This document shows positions 3,102-28,481 of a DNA stretch of 28,481 bases, piece by piece. Location: IMG/VR virus record IMGVR_UViG_3300039307_000042, positions 1 through 28,481 of that record. One strand, 5' to 3'. The notes below the pieces were generated by a model that saw nothing but the letters and a program-made list of their open reading frames with translations, made no database searches and had not been told where the DNA came from. The stretch comes from a virus. Positions within the stretch are counted from its first letter, which is position 1; the number at the start of each line of letters is the position of its first letter. Made by a program: the position numbers and the translations under genes.

Positions 3102-3976
3102 TGGCTACTTCTATAGGAATTCTGTCTTATAGCAGTGTACTTCTACCACCTCCTAATAGTGGGACATTTACCGTAGGTAATCAGCCCGACGCAATCGCTT
3201 TTGATGGTATTAATATGTGGATATGTAATAGTATGGACAATACTGTGACTGAGTTAAGTCCTACAGGAACTCCTGTTGGATCTAGCCCATTTTCTGTCGG
3301 TAATGGGCCGACTGGAATTGCTTTTGATCGGACTAATATGTGGGTGACCAATAAATTCGACAACACAGTTACTGAGCTGAACCTTTCTGGAGGCACTCTT
3401 GGAACATTCACTGTTTCCGCGGCAGCTCCAGAGGCTATTGTTTTTGGCGGTGGATATTTGTGGATAGCAAATCAGGATGGATCTGCTACTAAATTAAATA
3501 CATCAGGATCTGTAATATGGAATTCTTCAGCCGGGGGAGGTTATCCTAACGCCCTCACTTTCGATGGAACGAATATTTGGGTTACTAATCCTTATAGTGG
3601 TACCGTTACTGAGTTAGCGCCAGATGGATCTTTTATCGGAACATTTTCTGCGGGTAGTTATCCATGGTCTATAGCTTTTGATGGTACTAATATGTGGATT
3701 GCTAATGTAGGTACAAACTATGTTACTAAAATGAATCTTACAGGTTCTACGCTAGGGACATTTACTGTAGGTAATAATCCTCAGGCTATTATTTATGATG
3801 GTACTAATCTCTGTGTAGCAAACCAAGGAGACAGTTCTCTGACTGTGCTAAGTACTAGCGGATCCACAATCAACACTTACCCTACTGGTAGTAACCCAAC
3901 TGCGATTGCTTTCGATGGAACGAATATTTGGGTAGTTAACCAAGGCGATAACACCGTCACAGAGATAGCGGGCTAG
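3101..3976 (+). CDS. Free-standing seven-bladed beta-propeller protein
   Basis: 291 aa. Its ATG overlaps the upstream stop by one base (TAATG). After about 22 residues the whole protein is seven repeats of about 38-40 aa with the pattern FTVGN.P.AIAFDGTN.W..N..DNTVTEL...G. These are the same YVTN/NHL-like blade type as the preceding gene but with different blade sequences (FDGTNMW here, SDGTYVW there). It has no fibre-type linker and no signal peptide. It therefore looks like a second propeller domain made as its own polypeptide, perhaps a tip subunit on the preceding fibre or a variable adhesin. That partnership is an inference from adjacency. It is the last gene before the lysis region. Confidence 0.75.
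   Translation: MATSIGILSYSSVLLPPPNSGTFTVGNQPDAIAFDGINMWICNSMDNTVTELSPTGTPVGSSPFSVGNGPTGIAFDRTNMWVTNKFDNTVTELNLSGGTLGTFTVSAAAPEAIVFGGGYLWIANQDGSATKLNTSGSVIWNSSAGGGYPNALTFDGTNIWVTNPYSGTVTELAPDGSFIGTFSAGSYPWSIAFDGTNMWIANVGTNYVTKMNLTGSTLGTFTVGNNPQAIIYDGTNLCVANQGDSSLTVLSTSGSTINTYPTGSNPTAIAFDGTNIWVVNQGDNTVTEIAG
3167..3973 (+). repeat. Seven tandem ~115-120-bp coding repeats (propeller blades, second gene)
   Basis: Units share DNA such as TTTGATGGTACTAATATGTGG and TTCGATGGAACGAATATTTGG. The array ends flush with the end of the gene, so the last blade closes the protein. Confidence 0.7.
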
Positions 3977-4047: not shown

Positions 4048-4779
4048 ATGATTGATACTTTAAAACGATACTTAAGAATTGTAGAACATATACTTTTAGT
4101 TGTTGCTTTAATTTGTTCGGGAATATGGTTTCATAGATACAATTCGGAAAAACAGGCTCGCCAGACGGCTGAGATTGCGGCGAAGGGTTTGCCCTCAGGA
4201 ACTTTGGCGGAGTATATTCTTAAAAATAGAGAGCTTCTCGAAGAAGTAAAAAACGCGAAAGGTAAGACTGTTGTAAAGACTGTTTACGTTCCTGATGAAG
4301 GAGGCGTTCAAGTTGTTACTAAAGAAAAAGAAGCTCTTCAAGCAAAATATAATGCCTTGATGGCTCAATTGTTGGCGGCAAAAACTCCTTCTGAGATAAC
4401 GGCTATTCAGAAGGACCTTGCAGGGGTAGCTAATCAAATAGATCAGTCTACCACTGTTTCTGTTAAGACATGGGGCTTTACTAGTAGGTTTGGTTACGGC
4501 ATGATTGTTTCACCCTCAGTTAAAACGACAATTCCTTATAATGGGGGCTCTTTAAGTCTACCCGTCACCCCTTCTTTAGATTGGAAGTGGGGTTATGCGG
4601 GAAGATACTCGGGTATTTTACAGATTAATCCTTATTTTTGGGGACCGGGGCTTACTTATCATATAGATAATTTAATGCCTCAGTTTCTTCACATTAACAA
4701 CTTGGAGTTAGGCATTACAGGTGGACCAGGTTGGTTGGGTGGAAAATTTCTAGGACTTGATTTGAGAAATAACTTCTAA
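4048..4779 (+). CDS. Membrane-anchored coiled-coil protein, possibly spanin-like
   Basis: 243 aa, with GGAG about 9 nt before the ATG. Residues about 13-29 (HILLVVALICSGIWFHR) form one N-terminal membrane segment. A charged helical region follows (about 30-130; KNRELLEEVKNAKGK, KEKEALQAKYNALMAQLL) and looks like a coiled coil. The last 100 residues are rich in Gly, Tyr and Trp with alternating beta-type sequence (WKWGYAGRYSGILQINPYFW). Inner-membrane anchor plus periplasmic coil plus position just before a holin fits a spanin-like role in outer-membrane disruption. No family signature was recognised, however, and the beta-rich C-terminus is unusual for an i-spanin. It could instead be an unrelated envelope protein. 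Confidence 0.6.
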   Translation: MIDTLKRYLRIVEHILLVVALICSGIWFHRYNSEKQARQTAEIAAKGLPSGTLAEYILKNRELLEEVKNAKGKTVVKTVYVPDEGGVQVVTKEKEALQAKYNALMAQLLAAKTPSEITAIQKDLAGVANQIDQSTTVSVKTWGFTSRFGYGMIVSPSVKTTIPYNGGSLSLPVTPSLDWKWGYAGRYSGILQINPYFWGPGLTYHIDNLMPQFLHINNLELGITGGPGWLGGKFLGLDLRNNF

Positions 4780-4798: not shown

Positions 4799-5236
4799 AT
4801 GGGTAATTTGTTTAAGGCGTGGCTTAATCCGACGGTAGAGGTACTTTCATCTACATCTGTTTTAACTAAAGTAGGTGCAGCTACAGTCTCTTTTATTTTT
4901 GCTTCAGTTCTTAAAGCTCTTACACCCTCTGTAATAGGGACCGTAGTTTTACTTGTTTTGATAGATACTATCACAGGTCTAGTAGTAGCTGTTAAAAAGA
5001 AAAAAGTTTCTTCAAAGAAGTGGTATAAATCTCTAATTAAACTTAGCAATTACTGTGCTTTGATTATTGTAGGAGGTCTAGCAGGAGACATCTCTCTGTT
5101 ATCTTGGCTTTCTAGCACCTTCCTTCTCTTAATTGTTATCACGGAATTAATATCTATATTAGAGAATATATCTATTATTCAACCAGATTTAATACCTGAA
5201 AATATTATAAGAGTGCTTCATTTGCTGAAGGATTAA
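4799..5236 (+). CDS. Phage holin, toxin-secretion/phage holin (family 4) type
   Basis: 145 aa. Holins form inner-membrane lesions that release endolysin and time lysis. Hydrophobic segments lie at about 28-40, 46-65, 84-96 and 99-118. The second ends in DTITGLVVAVKKKKVSSKK, the D-x-ITG-basic pattern typical of this holin family (TcdE-like). The C-terminal ELISILENISI is also characteristic (family members have ELxSIxEN). It starts 20 nt after the preceding gene with no good Shine-Dalgarno site. An out-of-frame ATG at 4782 opens an 18-codon reading frame across the start, which may allow coupling. The endolysin is not recognisable nearby. Confidence 0.8.
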   Translation: MGNLFKAWLNPTVEVLSSTSVLTKVGAATVSFIFASVLKALTPSVIGTVVLLVLIDTITGLVVAVKKKKVSSKKWYKSLIKLSNYCALIIVGGLAGDISLLSWLSSTFLLLIVITELISILENISIIQPDLIPENIIRVLHLLKD

Positions 5237-5238
5237 AA

Positions 5239-5520
5239 ATGGGTATAATACCTATTTATTTCCACAGAGATTTTGGGGCGGCTTGTCCACATCTTATTGA
5301 TATACGACCCCCTACTCAACTGGTAGCTCAACTTGAGATTAAGGTTATATTAAAGTATTCTCCTTATCTCACTGACAGCAATCTCGGATATATACCAAGC
5401 GTTTACTCAGGCCTCCAACTGCTTACCCTCTTACACGGGACGCCTGAATATCTAAAACTATGCAATCCCTGCGTGGATGTAATCGCGTACACCAACCGAC
5501 GGATCTACCCATTTCTGTAA
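5239..5520 (+). CDS. Hypothetical 93-aa protein after the holin
   Basis: It starts 3 nt after the holin gene with a good ribosome-binding site (GAAGGA, 8 nt upstream). No domain was recognised. It has a short hydrophobic beginning (MGIIPIYF), four Cys and many Pro and aromatic residues, and no obvious transmembrane helix. Codon choice is more GC-rich than in the genes around it. Position suggests a lysis or late function, but no lysozyme, amidase or peptidase motif is visible. It is the last gene before the 466-nt gene-free region. Confidence 0.55.
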   Translation: MGIIPIYFHRDFGAACPHLIDIRPPTQLVAQLEIKVILKYSPYLTDSNLGYIPSVYSGLQLLTLLHGTPEYLKLCNPCVDVIAYTNRRIYPFL

Positions 5521-5536
5521 ATCATTATACTATTCG

Positions 5537-5553
5537 GGAGATGGTACATCTCC
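5537..5553. repeat. Hairpin 1 of three abutting hairpins
   Basis: GGAGATG (5537-5543) pairs with CATCTCC (5547-5553) around GTA, a perfect 7-bp stem. It touches the next hairpin with no spacer. Confidence 0.7.
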
Positions 5554-5587
5554 ACGATTATTAATAACTTTAGTTATTAATAATCGT
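5554..5587. repeat. Hairpin 2: 16-bp perfect inverted repeat with 2-nt centre
   Basis: ACGATTATTAATAACT (5554-5569) is exactly complementary to 5572-5587, with only TT between the arms. As DNA it could extrude a cruciform. As RNA it would form a long A/U-rich hairpin. Confidence 0.85.
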
Positions 5588-5616
5588 AATCTAAATAGCT
5601 AATAGCTATTTAGATT
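5588..5616. terminator. Hairpin 3, possible terminator of the lysis operon
   Basis: AATCTAAATAGCT (5588-5600) pairs perfectly with AGCTATTTAGATT (5604-5616), a 13-bp stem with AAT loop. It is followed by TTTAGCTTTT, which is moderately U-rich. The stem is A/T-rich, so it is an atypical intrinsic terminator. Being symmetric, it could act on both strands. Confidence 0.45.
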
Positions 5617-5746
5617 TAGCTTTTAGAAAAATAATAGAACGGCCAACAAAATCACAAAATAATACCACATATTACACCAAGTCATCTTAAAATAACTCCG
5701 GTATAATTATATTTTTATCCGCAGTAACTAACCCTACCCAGATTAA

Positions 5747-5798
5747 CACCTCCAAACTTCGTTAGCCTCGATACATTCGATGGCGAAAAGCTGAGGTG
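5747..5798. other. Structured element of unknown function
   Basis: CACCTC (5747-5752) can pair with GAGGTG (5793-5798). Inside, TTC/GAA, GCC/GGC and TCGA/TCGA segments can pair around a TACAT loop. The composition is more GC-rich than its surroundings. It may be a small RNA or an mRNA leader element. It is not a tRNA: the 52-nt span is too short and there are no canonical arms. Confidence 0.35.
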
Positions 5799-5919
5799 AG
5801 CCTTTGTATAGAAACTCAAACGAATTACAATGTACTATCCGTCTAGCTTTAAGATATAGCACAAATAACTAGCATTAGCAATCTAGTTAGTCATATAATA
5901 TAGCAATTAATTACTACCC

Positions 5920-5948
5920 GAAATGTTTAGTCAGAGCTTTTGTAAAAT
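5920..5948 (+). promoter_or_regulatory. Promoter of the cold-shock/helicase operon
   Basis: GAAATG (5920-5925) and TAAAAT (5943-5948) are separated by exactly 17 nt. The preceding C and following TTT give CGAAATGTTT, matching CGAAACATTTT upstream of 8382 and 12269 at the same spacing. Transcription would start near 5955, leaving a leader of about 32 nt with AGGAG before the ATG at 5987. Confidence 0.5.
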
Positions 5949-5986
5949 TAACTGAAGTGCGATATCTGGTTTAACAGGAGTAGAAT

Positions 5987-6232
5987 ATGAGTCAGACAGG
6001 AATGGTTAAGTGGTTTGATCCCAAGAAGGGGTATGGTTTTATTGTTGTGGAAGGAGTAGGAGATGTGTTTGTTCACTACTCCGACATAGAACAGGTTAAA
6101 GGGTTTCGTAGTTTGCGAGAGGGACAGCAGGTAAGATTTACGCTAACCAGTTCTGACAAGGGACATAAGGCTTCTAATGTAGTACGAACAGATTCTCTTG
6201 TAGCAGCCAGAGAGACGGTTTCTGCAGCCTAA
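5987..6232 (+). CDS. Cold-shock-domain protein (CspA-like)
   Basis: 81 aa, a single OB-fold cold-shock domain that binds single-stranded RNA or DNA. The nucleic-acid-binding motifs are both present: KGYGFI (residues 14-19, RNP1) and VFVHYSDI (27-34, RNP2), preceded by the usual GxVKWFDPKKGYG opening. It has a normal cold-shock domain plus a short 12-residue tail. The start is fixed by AGGAG 7 nt upstream. It is the first gene of an operon read from the promoter at 5920-5948 and overlaps the next gene by one base (TAATG). It may act as an RNA chaperone or antiterminator early in infection. This role is inferred, since host homologues act this way. Confidence 0.93.
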   Translation: MSQTGMVKWFDPKKGYGFIVVEGVGDVFVHYSDIEQVKGFRSLREGQQVRFTLTSSDKGHKASNVVRTDSLVAARETVSAA

Positions 6233-13669: not shown

Positions 13670-14353
13670 ATGAAAACAATTTTAATCTTGAGCGGTGGAC
13701 TTGACTCTACAGTACTTCTTTATAAACTAAAGGCAGAAGGTCGCGACGTCAAGGCCCTGTCGATTAACTACGGTCAACGCCATTCTAAGGAACTAGAGTT
13801 CGCCAAAAAGACCTGCGCCAAACTTGGAGTAGAGCACCAGATTGTAGATTTGTCTTCTCTAAAGCCGCTACTCGGAGGTAGCTCGCAGACGGATGCTAGT
13901 GTTGTAGTTCCCGATGGTCATTATGCTGCTGAAAATATGAAGCTTACAGTGGTACCTAATCGTAACTCAATTATGTTAAATGTAGCAGCAGCTTGGGCCA
14001 TTTCTGAGAAAGCAGACACTATTGCATACGGGGCACATTCGGGGGATCATCAAATTTATCCTGATTGTCGAGAAGAATTTGTTGATGCCTTGAATAAGAC
14101 GCTAGCTCTGGCAGACTGGCATGTAGTTCAGATTGAGAGACCTTTTATCAACATTTCCAAAACAGATGTAGTCAAGCTTGGTAGTCAGCTGAACGTTCCC
14201 TGGTTAGATACCTGGTCATGCTACAAAGGCGGAGAAATAGCTTGCGGAACCTGTGGCACCGACTACGAGCGTCGTGAGAGTTTTATCGAAGCAGGTGTTA
14301 CAGATCCTACGCCTTATCTAGATTCTACCACCAAGTTTGCTTCTCCAGTATAA
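13670..14353 (+). CDS. queC: 7-cyano-7-deazaguanine (preQ0) synthase QueC
   Basis: 227 aa, normal length. QueC converts 7-carboxy-7-deazaguanine to preQ0 using ATP and ammonia. The PP-loop SGGLDST is at residues 8-14, with further family blocks SINYGQRH (31-38), VVPNRNSIML (94-103) and GAHSGDHQIYPDCREEF (121-137). The zinc site has C184, C192 and C195, but the fourth expected Cys (CGxCxxC) is Asp198 (CGTCGTD). Its Shine-Dalgarno site AAGGA lies about 9 nt upstream. It is separated from queE, queD and folE2 by 4-13 kb, all in the same direction. Confidence 0.95.
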   Translation: MKTILILSGGLDSTVLLYKLKAEGRDVKALSINYGQRHSKELEFAKKTCAKLGVEHQIVDLSSLKPLLGGSSQTDASVVVPDGHYAAENMKLTVVPNRNSIMLNVAAAWAISEKADTIAYGAHSGDHQIYPDCREEFVDALNKTLALADWHVVQIERPFINISKTDVVKLGSQLNVPWLDTWSCYKGGEIACGTCGTDYERRESFIEAGVTDPTPYLDSTTKFASPV

Positions 14354-17826: not shown

Positions 17827-18020
17827 AATCCTGGCTTTGTTGCACCCTTAATCCTTTGCTAGAGTGTATGTTATGTGGCTTAAAGTTATGCGATCACCAC
17901 TCTACCCTAAAAGGATTTACTGAAGTATGGAATACTACAGGTTCTTGTACCAAAGTCTCTGTAGGAGAACCTGAGGGATGTCATATTTGGGGAAGTTCAA
18001 TATTCTGCCGCAACGAATAA
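17796..18020 (+). CDS. Cys-rich microprotein (74 aa), paralogue of 24622-24789
   Basis: GTG start with AAGGAAG 7 nt upstream, reading through the end of the preceding gene. Cysteines C15, C16, C24, C27, C32, H35 follow CC-x7-C-x2-C-x4-C-x2-H. The 55-aa protein at 24622 has the same spacing (last ligand Cys) and the shared start LCCxLN. Single later Cys residues (C51, C62, C71) add to the metal-binding look. No family recognised. Confidence 0.65.
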   Translation: MPSSSSQPQIKSWLCCTLNPLLECMLCGLKLCDHHSTLKGFTEVWNTTGSCTKVSVGEPEGCHIWGSSIFCRNE

Positions 18021-18043
18021 CACGAATACTAGTATTATATAAT
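18015..18043 (+). promoter_or_regulatory. Candidate promoter for queE
   Basis: GAATAA (18015-18020, preceded by C as at 8812), 17 nt, TATAAT (18038-18043), which abuts the ATG at 18044. An alternative -10, TATTAT (18033-18038), would place transcription at the start codon. No Shine-Dalgarno site. Confidence 0.35.
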
Positions 18044-18760
18044 ATGAAATTAAAAGTAAACGAAATTTATGGACCTGTTAAGCAGGGAGAAGGCAAATCT
18101 TCAGGACTAGAAGTTCTCTTCCTAAGACTATCAGGATGTAATCTAGCTTGTTCTTGGTGTGATACCCCTTATACGTGGAATTGGCAAGGCACCAAATTTG
18201 TTCATCCAGAAAAGTATGATCCTATGAAAGAAATTGTTTTTATGGATATCGACGAGATCAAGGCTGAATTAGATAAGCTTAATACTAAAGCTGTAGTAAT
18301 CTCTGGAGGAGAACCCCTACTCCAACAGAAGCCTCTTTTCCCTTTAATAGAGGCTCTTAAATTAAATGATTATTGGGTAGAGATTGAAACAAATGGTACA
18401 ATAGTTCCCGACCCCGAATTTCTTGATTTAGTAGATCAGATCAATTGCAGCCCTAAGTTATCTAATTCAGGCCCAGATAATCGACCTACGATGCGTGAGA
18501 GACCTGAAGCATTAACCGCTTTAGCCTCCAGTTCTAAAGTATCTTTTAAATGGGTAGTTACGTCAGATAAGGATTTAGAGGAAATAGAAACGCTTATCTC
18601 TAAATATGGTATGAAAGAGAATTACTTAATGCCTGAAGGTAAGACTCGAGTTGAGCAGTTAGCTCGACAGGACAAGGTTAAAAAGCTTTGTGAAGAAAAA
18701 GGATTCAAGTTTAGCCCCCGACTACATGTATTAGAGAATGACGTTAAAAGGCGGATATAA
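18044..18760 (+). CDS. queE: 7-carboxy-7-deazaguanine synthase QueE (radical SAM)
   Basis: 238 aa from ATG 18044. A longer in-frame start at 17978 would add 22 residues unlike the family, and the known N-terminus (MKLKVNEIYGPVKQGEG) starts here. QueE rearranges 6-carboxytetrahydropterin to 7-carboxy-7-deazaguanine. The iron-sulphur motif CxxxCxxC is C32, C36, C39 (GCNLACSWCD), then GGEP (88-91) for SAM binding and a C-terminal PRLHVLENDVKRR block typical of QueE. It lacks a Shine-Dalgarno site and is preceded by TATTATATAAT. It overlaps the protease gene by one base. Confidence 0.95.
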   Translation: MKLKVNEIYGPVKQGEGKSSGLEVLFLRLSGCNLACSWCDTPYTWNWQGTKFVHPEKYDPMKEIVFMDIDEIKAELDKLNTKAVVISGGEPLLQQKPLFPLIEALKLNDYWVEIETNGTIVPDPEFLDLVDQINCSPKLSNSGPDNRPTMRERPEALTALASSSKVSFKWVVTSDKDLEEIETLISKYGMKENYLMPEGKTRVEQLARQDKVKKLCEEKGFKFSPRLHVLENDVKRRI

Positions 18761-19557
18761 TGACACTTCTTCTTAATGCAGGATATCATTTATTAGTGTA
18801 TCTTTTTATTTTAGCTGTAGTAATATTTATTCACGAGATGGGTCATTACTTAGCTTGTAAGAAGTTAGGTATAGAAGTAGAAAGTTTTGCCTTAGGATTT
18901 GGTCCTGTATTATATAGTTTTAATTATTGGAACACTGAATTTTCTCTTAGAGCCATTCCTTTAGGAGGCTTTATCAAACCTGCCGGAATTGATAAGAGTC
19001 CTTCTGAATCTAGTTCTGATGAATATTTTGGTAAAGCGTGGTATAAACGATTACTGGTAGCCTATGCAGGACCTTTAATGAATTTTGTTTTAGCGTTTGT
19101 TATCTTTGTAGGATTAGTATTTATTAAGGATTCACGACCGCAGACGTTAGCTAACACATCTACAAATATTTCTCATAGCGTTACGCTGAGCTCCAGGATA
19201 TGCTGGTATCAGATCTCACAGACGTATCTTATTATATCTTCTAAACTTGGACAACATCAAAATCCAGGACTAATGGGACCTATAGGTATTTTTCAAGCTG
19301 TATCTCAAGCAGCATCTAGCTGGGTTGAAATCTTTTCAATGATGGCCGCAATTTCCATAGCTATAGGCTTGTTCAATATTCTACCCATCCCTCTACTAGA
19401 CGGAGGATTCGCAGTATTATTTCTGTGGGAAGGACTCACAGGAAAATTTCCTTCAAAGACAGTTGTTTTTGTTTGGCAGGTATTAGGAATAGCTTTTCTA
19501 GGATCGATTCTTTTACTAGCCACAGTCGGAGATCTAGGCAGACTTTTACATCCGTAA
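18760..19557 (+). CDS. Site-2-type membrane metalloprotease (M50, RseP-like), PDZ-less
   Basis: 265 aa, with a zinc site in the first membrane helix, HEMGH (25-29), followed by the family pattern CKKLGIEVESFALGFGP and IPLGGFIKPAG (65-76). The second metal/catalytic block is NILPIPLLDGG (206-216), giving the Asp ligand. Four hydrophobic segments lie at about 8-28, 98-122, 193-214 and 235-258. The PDZ domain(s) found between these in RseP are missing (about 125-165 is short and unrecognised), so this is a minimal core. Host RseP-type enzymes cleave membrane-bound anti-sigma factors and signal-peptide remnants. The phage enzyme may target such proteins or a phage membrane peptide. It overlaps queE by one base. 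Confidence 0.85.
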   Translation: MTLLLNAGYHLLVYLFILAVVIFIHEMGHYLACKKLGIEVESFALGFGPVLYSFNYWNTEFSLRAIPLGGFIKPAGIDKSPSESSSDEYFGKAWYKRLLVAYAGPLMNFVLAFVIFVGLVFIKDSRPQTLANTSTNISHSVTLSSRICWYQISQTYLIISSKLGQHQNPGLMGPIGIFQAVSQAASSWVEIFSMMAAISIAIGLFNILPIPLLDGGFAVLFLWEGLTGKFPSKTVVFVWQVLGIAFLGSILLLATVGDLGRLLHP

Positions 19558-21812: not shown

Positions 21813-21992
21813 ATGGATCTCTCTAAGGAGAAATTCTTAGAGTGCGTAGATGGATGTACTCATACATCCACGAGTGAAGCTTGTACACAATTTTGTATGC
21901 ATAATATACACTTAAGTAAGTGGTGTATTCGATGTAGAGATATTTGTGGAGTAGTTGTAGTTAGACCTAACGATATTCAGGAGAGATCATGA
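21813..21992 (+). CDS. Cys-rich microprotein (59 aa)
   Basis: ATG 21813 follows the preceding stop by one base. An upstream in-frame non-ATG start at 21774 is less likely. Ligand-like residues are C11, C15, H17, C24, C28, H30, C38, C41, C45 (CTQFCMH, WCIRCRDIC), suggesting one or two zinc sites. It is not clearly the same family as the 17796/24622 pair. Its end overlaps queD by 4 nt. Confidence 0.65.
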   Translation: MDLSKEKFLECVDGCTHTSTSEACTQFCMHNIHLSKWCIRCRDICGVVVVRPNDIQERS

Positions 21993-22462
21993 TTGTATCA
22001 AAGACATTTAAGTTTGAGGCCGGTCACAGATTAGCATTTGGATATCCAGGTAATTGCCAACACGCACACGGACATTCCTATGTAGTTACAGTAGTAATGG
22101 AAGCTAATACTGACGATCTTGATAAGTTTGGCTTTGTAAAAGATTTTAACGATTTCAAATCTCTTAAGCAGTGGATTGACGATAAATGGGATCACTCTTT
22201 TTTGGTCGCGGAGAAAGACACCCCTATGCTTACCTTTTTAAGAGAAAATAAGCAGAGACACTATATTTTTGACAATAATCCTACCGCAGAAAATATTGCC
22301 CGAGAACTATTTATTATTGCGGAAGAACTTTTAAACGATGGCGCAGCTTCTGTTACGGAAGTAAGAGTCAATGAAACGGCTACATCTGAAGCTGTCTATA
22401 GATCTACTTTGGTTCAAGATGCTTTAGACGTTAAGAGACTACTAGCCACAGCTAAGGCTTAA
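21989..22462 (+). CDS. queD: 6-carboxy-5,6,7,8-tetrahydropterin synthase QueD
   Basis: 157 aa. It converts dihydroneopterin triphosphate to 6-carboxytetrahydropterin. The zinc histidines are H13 (FEAGHRL), H27 and H29 (CQHAHGH), and the catalytic Cys23 sits in the QueD-specific CxxxHGH arrangement. FVKDFNDFKSL, WDHSFL and the C-terminal VRVNET with its substrate-binding Glu complete the PTPS/QueD fold. It has a small insert near 75-88 (RENKQRHYIF) compared with short QueD proteins. AGGAGAG lies about 5 nt before the ATG. Confidence 0.93.
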   Translation: MIVSKTFKFEAGHRLAFGYPGNCQHAHGHSYVVTVVMEANTDDLDKFGFVKDFNDFKSLKQWIDDKWDHSFLVAEKDTPMLTFLRENKQRHYIFDNNPTAENIARELFIIAEELLNDGAASVTEVRVNETATSEAVYRSTLVQDALDVKRLLATAKA

Positions 22463-24792: not shown

Positions 24793-27243
24793 ATGTCCTT
24801 TGATTTAATTCCCAACCAGAACTGTACTTTATGTGGACTATGTAAGACTCGAAAAACTATCGTTAACGGAGTAGGACCTATTACTTCTAAGATCATGGTT
24901 ATTCGTGAAGGACCTAATTTCGAAGAAGATAAGATGGGATCTCCTATGCTTGGAGATGCTGGCAGATTATGGAAACAGCTATTAAAACAAGCTGGAATAG
25001 ATTATCGAGATATCTTCATGACTAATTTAACTCGATGTCATGGAGGAGTAATAGATGCAAAGAAAGGTCCTAAAGATCCTTCCACTGAAGAAATAGTTGC
25101 TTGCTCCCCTTTCTTAGATGAAGAAATTAAGAGAATTCAGCCTGTAGTAATAGTACCTGTAGGAAATATAGCTCTTAGATATTTCTTAGAAAGTAAAGCT
25201 GCTTCTATTATGTCTCACAGAGGTACTGAATTTTGGTCAGATAAATATAATTGCAAAATTATTCCTACTATACATCCTGCAGCCATCCTAAGAAATCCTC
25301 AGTATACATCTATTACTGTTCAGGATCTAGTAAGAATTAAAGAGTCCTCTAAGTATACTGGATTAACTCCTAAGAGTACAGGTAACTATACTATTGTAGA
25401 CACTCCTGAAAAAGTAGAGATGTTATTTAAAAATCTAACAGAAGCTAGTGAAATAGCTATTGATATTGAGACGACCGATTTAAATCCCCGCAAGGGCGAT
25501 ATTTCTTGTATTGGATTTAGCTGGAAGGACAGAGAAGGATGGTGTCTCCCCTTAATGAAGGCTGGAGGTAGCACCGATTCTTTTTGGGAATATTCAGTTA
25601 CTATTGATTTATGGGAAAGAGTCAGAAAGATTTTAGAAGGCCCTTCTAAGAAGATAGGACATAACTTTAAATTCGACCAGAAGTTTTTTATAATGAAAGG
25701 CATTAAATTAAACAATTTCTGGTTTGATACAATGTTAGCCCATCATCTTATTGATGAGAACGCCGAAAATTTACACGGTCTAAAAGATTGTGCATGGGCT
25801 TATACTGATATGGGAGGCTACGATAAAGATTTAGATGATTGGTTTAAAGCTAATAAACAATTTAAAGGTCAATATATTCAAGTACCTTTCGATATGCTTA
25901 ATCTATATTGCGCAAAGGATGCTGACTGCACCTTTAGACTTTTTAAGATATTCGAGCCTCAGATTAACGCAGCTAATCTCACTAGACTCATGAGACAGGT
26001 AGTTTTACCTGCTAGAGATGTTTTAATGGATGCCGAGTTGTTAGGTATTCAGGCTGATCGAGATTATATAGAAAAACTGAGGGTAGAGTATTCTACAAAG
26101 CGAAGTTCTTTAGAACAGAGCATTTTTGGTTCAGTAGGACAGCCTTTTAATATCAATTCATCAAAGCAGTTACAAGATATTCTATTTACCAAATTAGGTT
26201 TCTCTCCCGCAGGTAAAACCAAGGGAGGGGGACTATCTACAGATAATAAAGCTATAGAAATTATTTCAAAGCAGAATCCTAACCATCCTATACCTAAGCT
26301 TTTATTAGAATATAAGGACTGTCAAAAGATTTTAAGTACTTTTATCGAAGGGCTATCAGAACATATTGATGTAGATGGTAGAGTACATAGCAACTATAAG
26401 CAGCACGGTACTACTACGGGAAGATTATCTTCTAGCGAACCTAACATGCAACAGATTCCTAGAGAGTCTATTGTAAGAGGTATCTTTATATCTCGTCCAG
26501 GATATAAGTTAATTGAAGCCGACTATTCTTCGGCTGAATTTAGATGGTGGGGTGAATATAGTAGAGACCCTCAAATGGTAGAAGATTTAAAAAATAATGT
26601 AGATATTCACAGAATGACATACGCCCTATCTCACGGAGTAGACATTAGCAGTGTTACCGACACTCAGCGGCAGCAGGCTAAGGCGACTGTATTCGGTCTT
26701 ATGTTCGGAAGAGGAACATGGTCTCTTGCCGAAGAGCTAGGTATTCCTGAATCAGACGCTAAAAAAATTGTAAGTATTTTCTTTGGTAGATATCCTCAGG
26801 CACAAGCCTGGTTAAAGCAACAAATCTTTATAGCAAAGAAGACTGGTCAGGTAGTTAATTATTTTGGAAGAATTCGCAGACTTCCAGGAATTAATAGCAA
26901 TCAGGATATGGCTAGATCTGAAGCTGAAAGACAGTGTAAGAATTCTCCTATCCAAGGAGCTGCAGCAGACATGACTATGATAGCCTCTGTACGTATTAAA
27001 AAGGCTTTACTTAATGCAAAATTAACAGGTAGTTTAGTAATGACAGTTCACGATTCTTTAGTGTATGAAGTACCTGAAAATGAAGTAGAGGCTACCTTTA
27101 GTATAGTTAAAGCTGAAGCTGAAAGACCTGTAGCAGGAGCGATAGTTCCTATGTTAGTAGATATCAAAGTAGGAACTCGATTAGGTTCTCTAAAGAAGAT
27201 AAAGAATATATCAGAATTATCTTCTGAATTATGTATTAAATAA
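24793..27243 (+). CDS. Family A DNA polymerase with N-terminal uracil-glycosylase-like domain and 3'-5' exonuclease
   Basis: 816 aa. Residues 1-185 resemble family 4 uracil-DNA glycosylase as in the SPO1-type polymerases: iron-sulphur Cys C11, C14, C82, C104, and HPA motif 161-163. The first active-site motif is changed, EGPN at 39-42 instead of EAPG. The 3'-5' exonuclease has Exo I DIETT (D224, E226), Exo II HNFKFD (290-295) and Exo III YCAKD (372-376). The polymerase has motif A ADYSSAEFR (D577), motif B RQQAKATVFGLMFG (K630, F634, F638, with Phe where Pol I has Tyr766) and motif C VHDS (D754; Ser755 where Pol I has Glu883). AGAGG precedes the ATG. It is the main replicase candidate. Confidence 0.95.
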   Translation: MSFDLIPNQNCTLCGLCKTRKTIVNGVGPITSKIMVIREGPNFEEDKMGSPMLGDAGRLWKQLLKQAGIDYRDIFMTNLTRCHGGVIDAKKGPKDPSTEEIVACSPFLDEEIKRIQPVVIVPVGNIALRYFLESKAASIMSHRGTEFWSDKYNCKIIPTIHPAAILRNPQYTSITVQDLVRIKESSKYTGLTPKSTGNYTIVDTPEKVEMLFKNLTEASEIAIDIETTDLNPRKGDISCIGFSWKDREGWCLPLMKAGGSTDSFWEYSVTIDLWERVRKILEGPSKKIGHNFKFDQKFFIMKGIKLNNFWFDTMLAHHLIDENAENLHGLKDCAWAYTDMGGYDKDLDDWFKANKQFKGQYIQVPFDMLNLYCAKDADCTFRLFKIFEPQINAANLTRLMRQVVLPARDVLMDAELLGIQADRDYIEKLRVEYSTKRSSLEQSIFGSVGQPFNINSSKQLQDILFTKLGFSPAGKTKGGGLSTDNKAIEIISKQNPNHPIPKLLLEYKDCQKILSTFIEGLSEHIDVDGRVHSNYKQHGTTTGRLSSSEPNMQQIPRESIVRGIFISRPGYKLIEADYSSAEFRWWGEYSRDPQMVEDLKNNVDIHRMTYALSHGVDISSVTDTQRQQAKATVFGLMFGRGTWSLAEELGIPESDAKKIVSIFFGRYPQAQAWLKQQIFIAKKTGQVVNYFGRIRRLPGINSNQDMARSEAERQCKNSPIQGAAADMTMIASVRIKKALLNAKLTGSLVMTVHDSLVYEVPENEVEATFSIVKAEAERPVAGAIVPMLVDIKVGTRLGSLKKIKNISELSSELCIK

Positions 27244-27689: not shown

Positions 27690-28481
27690 ATGGAAACAGT
27701 TAATACGACTGAGACGCGATTGGAAACAATTTCTAGGGCTGGAGGATTTAAGAAAGCAGCTTTGCCCGATGTACATATTACCCCTGATGAAAGAGGGATT
27801 GAGATTAATCGTGTTGGAGTAGAAGGTGTAGCTGTTCCAATTGTCTTAAATCGCAAAGGCGGAGGAGAACCTGTAAAAACTTTAGCCAAGGTTAATATGT
27901 TTGGATCTTTAGAGAAGCGCTTGAAAGGGACCAATATGAGTCGCTTCGCGCAGTTGTTTGTTACGGAGGATAATCACTCAGCACTATCTGGCAATGCCTT
28001 CCCAGCTCTTTTAGAGAAGTTAGCTACCAGTTTAGATACAAAAGATGTATACATCTCTGCAAGCTTTGACTACTGGATGAATAAGACTACTCCTGTAAGT
28101 AAGATTTCAGCTCCTTCAGGATACTCTTGCAGATTCATTGGACAGCTTGTATCAGGTAAACTTAAATTTATTACTGAAGTAACAGTTCCAGTCGCCTCAT
28201 ATTGCCCTTGCAGTAAGGAGATGTGTCTTACTGATAAAAAGACGGGAGTAGGTTTAGGAGCACATGCCCAGCGAGGGATGGTCACATTACAGGTACGTAC
28301 AAATCCTCCAACTCCAGGACTATGGCTAGAAGATATGATTCGCATTGCAGAGACTTCAGGATCAGCAGAATTATACCCTATTCTTAAGAGAGAAGATGAG
28401 AAGTATGTTACTATAGCGGGATACGATAATCCTAAGTTTGTAGAAGATATTTCTAGAGATGTAGGTAATAAGATTCAGCTA
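27690..28481 (+). CDS. folE2: GTP cyclohydrolase FolE2 (type IB), runs off right edge
   Basis: 264 residues to the window edge without a stop, nearly the full family length. Start ATG 27690 has GGAG 6 nt upstream (27680-27683). An in-frame ATG at 27678 would add four residues. FolE2 opens GTP to 7,8-dihydroneopterin triphosphate, the first step to preQ0 and folate. Diagnostic blocks are GTNMSRFAQLF (80-90), CPCSKE (172-177, metal Cys), GAHAQRG (190-196) and YPILKREDEKYVT near 227-239 with NPKFVEDISRDV. Type IB is unrelated in sequence to the usual FolE and can use metals other than zinc. Together with queD, queE and queC it completes the route to preQ0. Confidence 0.95.
   Translation, partial: METVNTTETRLETISRAGGFKKAALPDVHITPDERGIEINRVGVEGVAVPIVLNRKGGGEPVKTLAKVNMFGSLEKRLKGTNMSRFAQLFVTEDNHSALSGNAFPALLEKLATSLDTKDVYISASFDYWMNKTTPVSKISAPSGYSCRFIGQLVSGKLKFITEVTVPVASYCPCSKEMCLTDKKTGVGLGAHAQRGMVTLQVRTNPPTPGLWLEDMIRIAETSGSAELYPILKREDEKYVTIAGYDNPKFVEDISRDVGNKIQL

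What the first reader, a model, noticed from the sequence alone, without database searches (positions are those of the whole stretch)
5537..5616. Three perfect hairpins placed back to back with no spacer
Stems of 7, 16 and 13 bp abut exactly at 5553/5554 and 5587/5588, so all 80 nt are paired or loop. The middle one has only a 2-nt centre. This is far more structure than a normal terminator and lies at the boundary between late and replication modules. Options: a bidirectional terminator, an RNA-stabilising 3' structure, a processed small RNA, a replication origin or protein-binding site, or a target for the Mre11/Rad50 hairpin nuclease.
Basis: seen in the sequence. Interest (0 to 1): 0.6.

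Follow-up and report, generated by a model that had tools for sequence, protein, structure and literature searches.

The report
Triple-hairpin end of phage lysis message
Right after the lysis genes of an uncultured phage, three RNA hairpins sit back to back and are kept by evolution; they most likely form the protected 3' end of the late message at a spot where related phages use an ordinary terminator.

Summary
In detail: three perfect hairpins occupy 5537-5553, 5554-5587 and 5588-5616 with no spacer (RNA MFE -38.8 kcal/mol, z = -10; none of 40 shuffled windows has a triple). They start 16 nt after the last late/lysis gene, in a 466-nt gap before the cold-shock/helicase replication operon.

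The only relative found that covers the locus (IMG/VR 3300028654_000012, ~80% nt identity nearby) has the same three hairpins in the same place. Of 32 aligned base pairs, 7 changed on both sides and none is broken; loops GTA and TTTA are unchanged. The structure is therefore under selection.

At the equivalent holin|helicase junction, SPO1-like phages carry a textbook U-tailed terminator. Here there is no U-tract in the relative and a poor one in the window. Instead the gap downstream is, in both phages, among the strongest C>G (rut-like) tracts of the transcribed strand.

Best reading: the 3'-end element of the late transcript, a hairpin cluster of the 'V-shaped' class that blocks 3' exonucleases and probably works with Rho-dependent termination just downstream. 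DNA-level roles (origin, Mre11/Rad50 target) have no positive support. New variant of a known kind; no transcript data were available.

The parts
4799..5236 (+). holin (Phage_holin_4_1), late/lysis gene upstream of the element
   Evidence: Pfam PF05105 E 8e-15, phrog_199
5239..5520 (+). last late ORF, 93 aa, orphan family, conserved in G001 (about 81% identical); the element follows its stop codon by 16 nt
5537..5553 (+). hairpin 1, 7 bp, loop GTA; in G001 at 49425-49441 with one A-T to G-C compensatory change, loop identical
5554..5587 (+). hairpin 2, 15-16 bp, apical ACTTTAGT conserved; in G001 at 49442-49489, 23 positions long with a symmetric TGGAA/TGGAA internal loop; 4 of 16 alignable pairs changed on both sides
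5588..5616 (+). hairpin 3, 13 bp, loop AAT; in G001 at 49502-49541 (9-bp base, longer apical part, 12-nt spacer after hairpin 2), two compensatory changes
5629..5778 (+). unstructured C-rich, G-poor tract (C39/G12), candidate Rho-utilisation (rut) region; counterpart G001 49697-49846 (C46/G15)
   Evidence: regular C spacing met only in G001
5924..5950 (+). 27-nt conserved block TGTTTARTCRGAGNTTTTGTARAATTA upstream of the CSP gene, probable promoter/leader of the replication operon
   Evidence: function inferred
5987..6232 (+). cold-shock protein gene, first gene of the replication operon
   Evidence: PF00313 E 8e-23

Best explanation
The three hairpins are the 3'-end element of the late (lysis-end) transcript. 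Shown: they are the first thing after the last late stop codon, and all three stems are maintained by compensatory change in the one relative found. Also shown: they stand where SPO1-like phages have a U-tailed terminator, and the spacer behind them is C-rich and G-poor in both phages. Inferred mechanism: RNA polymerase leaving the lysis genes is slowed by or partly released at the hairpin cluster. What reads through exposes about 150 nt of unstructured C-rich RNA, where Rho loads and ends transcription before the cold-shock/helicase operon. 3'-5' exonucleases then trim the end back and stop at the hairpins, which leaves a stable late mRNA.
For: Fold and significance in both phages. 7 two-sided compensatory changes, 0 one-sided and 0 broken of 32 aligned pairs. 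Placement 15-16 nt after the stop codon in both. Homologous holin|gap|helicase junction with an L-shaped terminator in SP8, Goe16 and SPO1L4, and the same late|helicase junction in LysYB1. U-tailed terminators exist elsewhere in this lineage but not here. C>G excess of the gap is rank 1 at 300 nt in both phages, rank 1-2 at 150 nt, and absent from other gaps. The trimming-to-hairpin mechanism is established in E. coli and B. subtilis (PMC11925234, PMC12350095, PMC7815308).
Against: No RNA data. Only two sequences carry the element. The RhoTermPredict-style regular C spacing is met in G001 but essentially not in the window. The host is unknown, so its Rho and exonucleases are not shown. A perfect palindrome array would look the same if selected as DNA.
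Confidence: 0.5

Rival explanations
1. The hairpin cluster alone is a U-tract-independent intrinsic terminator (V-shaped class); Rho plays no part and the C-rich spacer is incidental.
For: V-shaped (no-spacer) hairpins are a described terminator class and hairpin clusters without U-trails correlate with RNA-seq termination within 80 nt of stop codons (PMC8355165); hp3 in the window has a weak T-rich tail TAGCTTTTAG.
Against: Stems 2 and 3 are AT-rich; in G001 hp3 is followed by ACAACAACA, with no U at all; the same lineage uses U-tailed terminators elsewhere; termination by U-less hairpins is contested.
Confidence: 0.25
2. RNA processing site or source of a small RNA: hairpin 2 (or the 2/3 coaxial stack) is cut by RNase III, separating late and replication messages or releasing a small structured RNA.
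For: 15-23-bp near-perfect duplex in both phages; conserved loops GTA and TTTA.
Against: No known RNA family matches; 15 bp is short for RNase III in the window; one-sided location at the operon end is explained without it.
Confidence: 0.12
3. DNA-level element: replication origin, cruciform, binding site of a dimeric protein, or a site acted on by the phage Mre11/Rad50-type nuclease.
For: Stems are pure Watson-Crick with no G-U in either phage; DNA folding is also highly significant; the cumulative AT-skew minimum lies at 5624 in the window and 49447 in G001, on the array.
Against: GC skew keeps its sign and third-codon-position GC skew does not flip, unlike at a bidirectional origin; placement 15-16 nt after a stop codon on the transcribed strand and the SPO1-like terminator at the same junction fit an RNA role; stem length is not conserved, as a protein site would need.
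Confidence: 0.1

Closest known systems
V-shaped (no-spacer tandem hairpin) intrinsic terminators in the I/L/U/V/X classification; hairpin-cluster terminators (PMC8355165)
   Same: Consecutive hairpins without separation, no U-trail needed, within 80 nt of a stop codon
   Different: Three hairpins rather than the usual two; in a phage at the late/replication junction; conserved by compensatory change; followed by a rut-like tract
Rho-terminated mRNAs with a trimmed, hairpin-protected 3' end (E. coli galE/galETKM, PMC11925234; B. subtilis, PMC12350095)
   Same: Stable hairpin just after the stop codon, U-poor, with a C-rich G-poor unstructured region downstream
   Different: Three stems instead of one; Rho dependence and trimming not demonstrated here
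L-shaped terminator between holin and UvsW-like helicase in SPO1-like phages (SP8, Goe16, SPO1L4) and between late genes and helicase in LysYB1
   Same: Same genomic junction and same place after the last late gene
   Different: Single G+C-rich stem with U-run there; three mostly AT-rich stems without U-run here

Membership tests
Canonical (L-shaped) intrinsic terminator | G+C-rich stem immediately followed by a run of U | tested here: not met
   Window tail TAGCTTTTAG after an AT-rich stem passes only a lax scan; G001 tail is ACAACAACA; strict scan finds none here, though it finds three elsewhere in the lineage
V-shaped / hairpin-cluster terminator | two or more hairpins with no (cluster: <15 nt) separation downstream of a stop codon | tested here: met
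   Spacers 0 and 0 in the window; 0 and 12 in G001; start 15-16 nt after stop (definition in PMC8355165)
V-shaped / hairpin-cluster terminator | transcript ends at the cluster | not testable with these tools
   No RNA-seq held
Rho-dependent terminator | unstructured, ribosome-free C>G tract of about 78 nt or more | tested here: met
   Window 5629-5778 C39/G12, G001 49697-49846 C46/G15; top ranks in the transcribed strand; weak folding
Rho-dependent terminator | regularly spaced C residues (every 11-13 nt) in that tract (RhoTermPredict) | tested here: inconclusive
   Met in G001 (best C/G 3.75-4.67), not in the window except C/G 1.27 with a looser spacing
Rho-dependent terminator | termination abolished by bicyclomycin or rho mutation | not testable with these tools
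   Host unknown, no experiment
Known Rfam RNA family | covariance-model match above gathering score | tested here: not met
   0 matches in the window
Bidirectional replication origin | sign change of GC skew at the site | tested here: not met
   GC skew positive on both sides; only AT skew changes

The most novel reading that the evidence does not exclude
A phage-specific, structurally conserved triple-hairpin 3'-end module that replaces the U-tailed terminator of SPO1-like relatives and pairs an exonuclease shield with a downstream rut tract. With its invariant GTA and TTTA loops it may be read by a phage or host protein as a late/early switch.
Probability: 0.2. Interest if true: 0.5.

Novelty: new variant of a known kind. 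Interest (0 to 1): 0.33.

Why it matters
It gives a conserved phage example of a no-spacer hairpin cluster without a U-tract at a defined operon end. It makes testable whether such clusters terminate transcription by themselves or shield Rho-terminated messages from exonucleases, and shows a swap of terminator type at one conserved phage junction.

Tried and rejected
Rfam: no match. blastn of 4-8.4 kb against 50,697 phages: no match. Pattern scan with the hairpin-1 consensus: G001 plus two chance hits inside unrelated DNA. Scans with the 93-aa ORF, holin, HAD, DnaB, PolA, helicase and the 27-mer found only G001, fragments of its kind that do not reach the locus, near-identical contigs of the window phage that do not reach the locus, and distant phages without the local gene order. 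Genome contigs: one weak helicase hit. No second copy of the array in the window, in G001, or in the 38.6-kb contig of the window's phage. Origin idea set aside because GC skew does not flip; bidirectional terminator set aside because no T-run exists on the other strand and no convergent genes do. Assembly artefact rejected because the independent contig G001 has the same structures. A covariance model was not built: two sequences would add nothing beyond the hand count.

Full report
Observation. The three hairpins are real and exactly where stated: 5537-5553, 5554-5587, 5588-5616. The fold of 5527-5626 has MFE -38.8 kcal/mol against -12.9 +/- 2.6 in shuffles, and -27.9 with DNA parameters for 5537-5616, z -12. 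It is the only cluster of abutting perfect hairpins in the window; G001, G002 and G004 (284 kb) have none by the same strict rule, and 40 shuffled windows give no triple. Chance is excluded. Strictly, hairpin 2 as RNA is 15 bp with a UUUA loop.

Setting. Upstream are tail/structural genes, then 4048-4779 (apparent N-terminal hydrophobic stretch, no family match), a Phage_holin_4_1 holin and a 93-aa orphan. Downstream are a cold-shock protein, HAD phosphatase, UvsW-like helicase, IstB/DnaC-like ATPase, DnaB, primase, RecA, Rad50/Mre11-type proteins and a UDG-PolA fusion. All real genes lie on the + strand. The gap 5521-5986 (466 nt) is by far the largest of the window; others are 60-135 nt. The array starts 16 nt after the stop codon.

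Conservation. One relative with the locus was found: G001 (IMGVR_UViG_3300028654_000012, 116.7 kb), about 75-83% nt identity in neighbouring genes. After the orthologous 93-aa gene, G001 has hairpin 1 at 49425-49441, hairpin 2 at 49442-49489 (again abutting) and hairpin 3 at 49502-49541. Its fold is also significant (z -6.1). I aligned the arms by hand (hairpin 2 from the base for the outer pairs and from the loop for the inner pairs): 32 pairs, 25 identical, 7 changed on both sides, 0 changed on one side, 0 broken. Loops GTA and TTTA are unchanged, while hairpin 2 differs in length (16 pairs versus 23 positions with a TGGAA/TGGAA internal loop). Structure, not sequence or length, is kept. Limit: two sequences, and the alignment of the arms is my own choice.

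Comparison at the same junction. In SPO1-like phages (SP8, Goe16, SPO1L4), the lysis genes (annotated endolysin and holin in SP8) are followed by a 230-250-nt gap and then the helicase; directly after the holin stands a textbook terminator, AAAAATCCCTTGG...CCAAGGGATTTTTTATT. Lysinibacillus phage LysYB1 has a U-tailed terminator between its last late gene and the helicase. Enterococcus EFDG1 has a sigma-70-like promoter before the helicase, but no terminator by this scan. So the junction is a natural transcript end. The window lineage itself does use U-tailed terminators elsewhere: G001 3302-3335, and a conserved one at G001 89679-89708 and in G006 at 28070-28099. Here there is none in G001 (tail ACAACAACA) and only a poor one in the window.

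Downstream tract. The spacer after the hairpins is C-rich and G-poor on the transcribed strand: window 5629-5778 has C39/G12 and G001 49697-49846 has C46/G15. At 300 nt it ranks first in both genomes, at 150 nt second and first. Other intergenic gaps have G at or above C when pooled (window 68 C/92 G; G001 208/250), so this is not a general feature of gaps. The tract folds no better than shuffles. Regular C spacing as RhoTermPredict asks (PMC6407284) is met in G001 but not, in any strong form, in the window. This is suggestive of Rho, not proof.

Mechanism. In E. coli and B. subtilis, Rho-terminated messages are trimmed by 3'-5' exonucleases until a stable hairpin blocks them (PMC11925234; PMC12350095; PMC7815308). 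The anatomy here (stop codon, 15-16 nt, hairpin array, C-rich unstructured stretch, conserved 27-mer, next operon) matches that. I commit to a late-transcript 3'-end element: hairpin shield plus probable Rho-dependent termination downstream. That it is a transcript 3'-end element of some kind I hold at about 0.75; the full Rho-plus-shield version at 0.5. The main rival is termination by the hairpin cluster itself, the V-shaped class (PMC8355165), which a survey cited there puts at 0.1% of terminators.

DNA readings. The cumulative AT skew reaches its minimum at 5624 in the window and 49447 in G001, on the array. GC skew keeps its sign. The AT change is carried by codon positions 2 and 3 (late genes p3 -0.26 to -0.31, replication genes -0.03 to -0.05), so it reads as a difference in codon usage and protein composition between gene classes and not as an origin signature. 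All stems are pure Watson-Crick, so a DNA role is not excluded.

Verdict. The function is most likely an ordinary one, ending and protecting the late message, carried out by an unusual three-hairpin form.

Noticed in passing
window 13670-14353, 17978-18760, 21989-22462: QueC, a radical-SAM protein (QueE-like) and a PTPS (QueD-like) protein lie among the replication genes, suggesting 7-deazaguanine synthesis, perhaps for DNA modification.
   Followed up: no
window 24793-27243: DNA polymerase A with an N-terminal uracil-DNA-glycosylase-like domain, as in SPO1-like phages; the gene order of the replication module also resembles that of Herelleviridae.
   Followed up: partly
window 5924-5950; G001 counterpart: 27-nt block TGTTTARTCRGAGNTTTTGTARAATTA upstream of the cold-shock gene conserved between the two phages, single copy; probably a promoter or leader element.
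   Followed up: partly
window about 5624; G001 about 49447: Cumulative AT skew has its minimum exactly at the hairpin array in both phages; third-codon-position AT skew differs sharply between late and replication genes.
   Followed up: partly
G001 49442-49489: Hairpin 2 of the relative contains a symmetric TGGAA/TGGAA internal loop, the sequence that (from memory, not looked up) forms stacked sheared G-A pairs in DNA.
   Followed up: no
G001 89679-89708 and G006 28070-28099: A U-tailed terminator conserved between the relative and the window phage's own downstream contig.
   Followed up: no
window 18760-19557: A site-2-protease-like (Peptidase M50) gene in a phage replication module.
   Followed up: no
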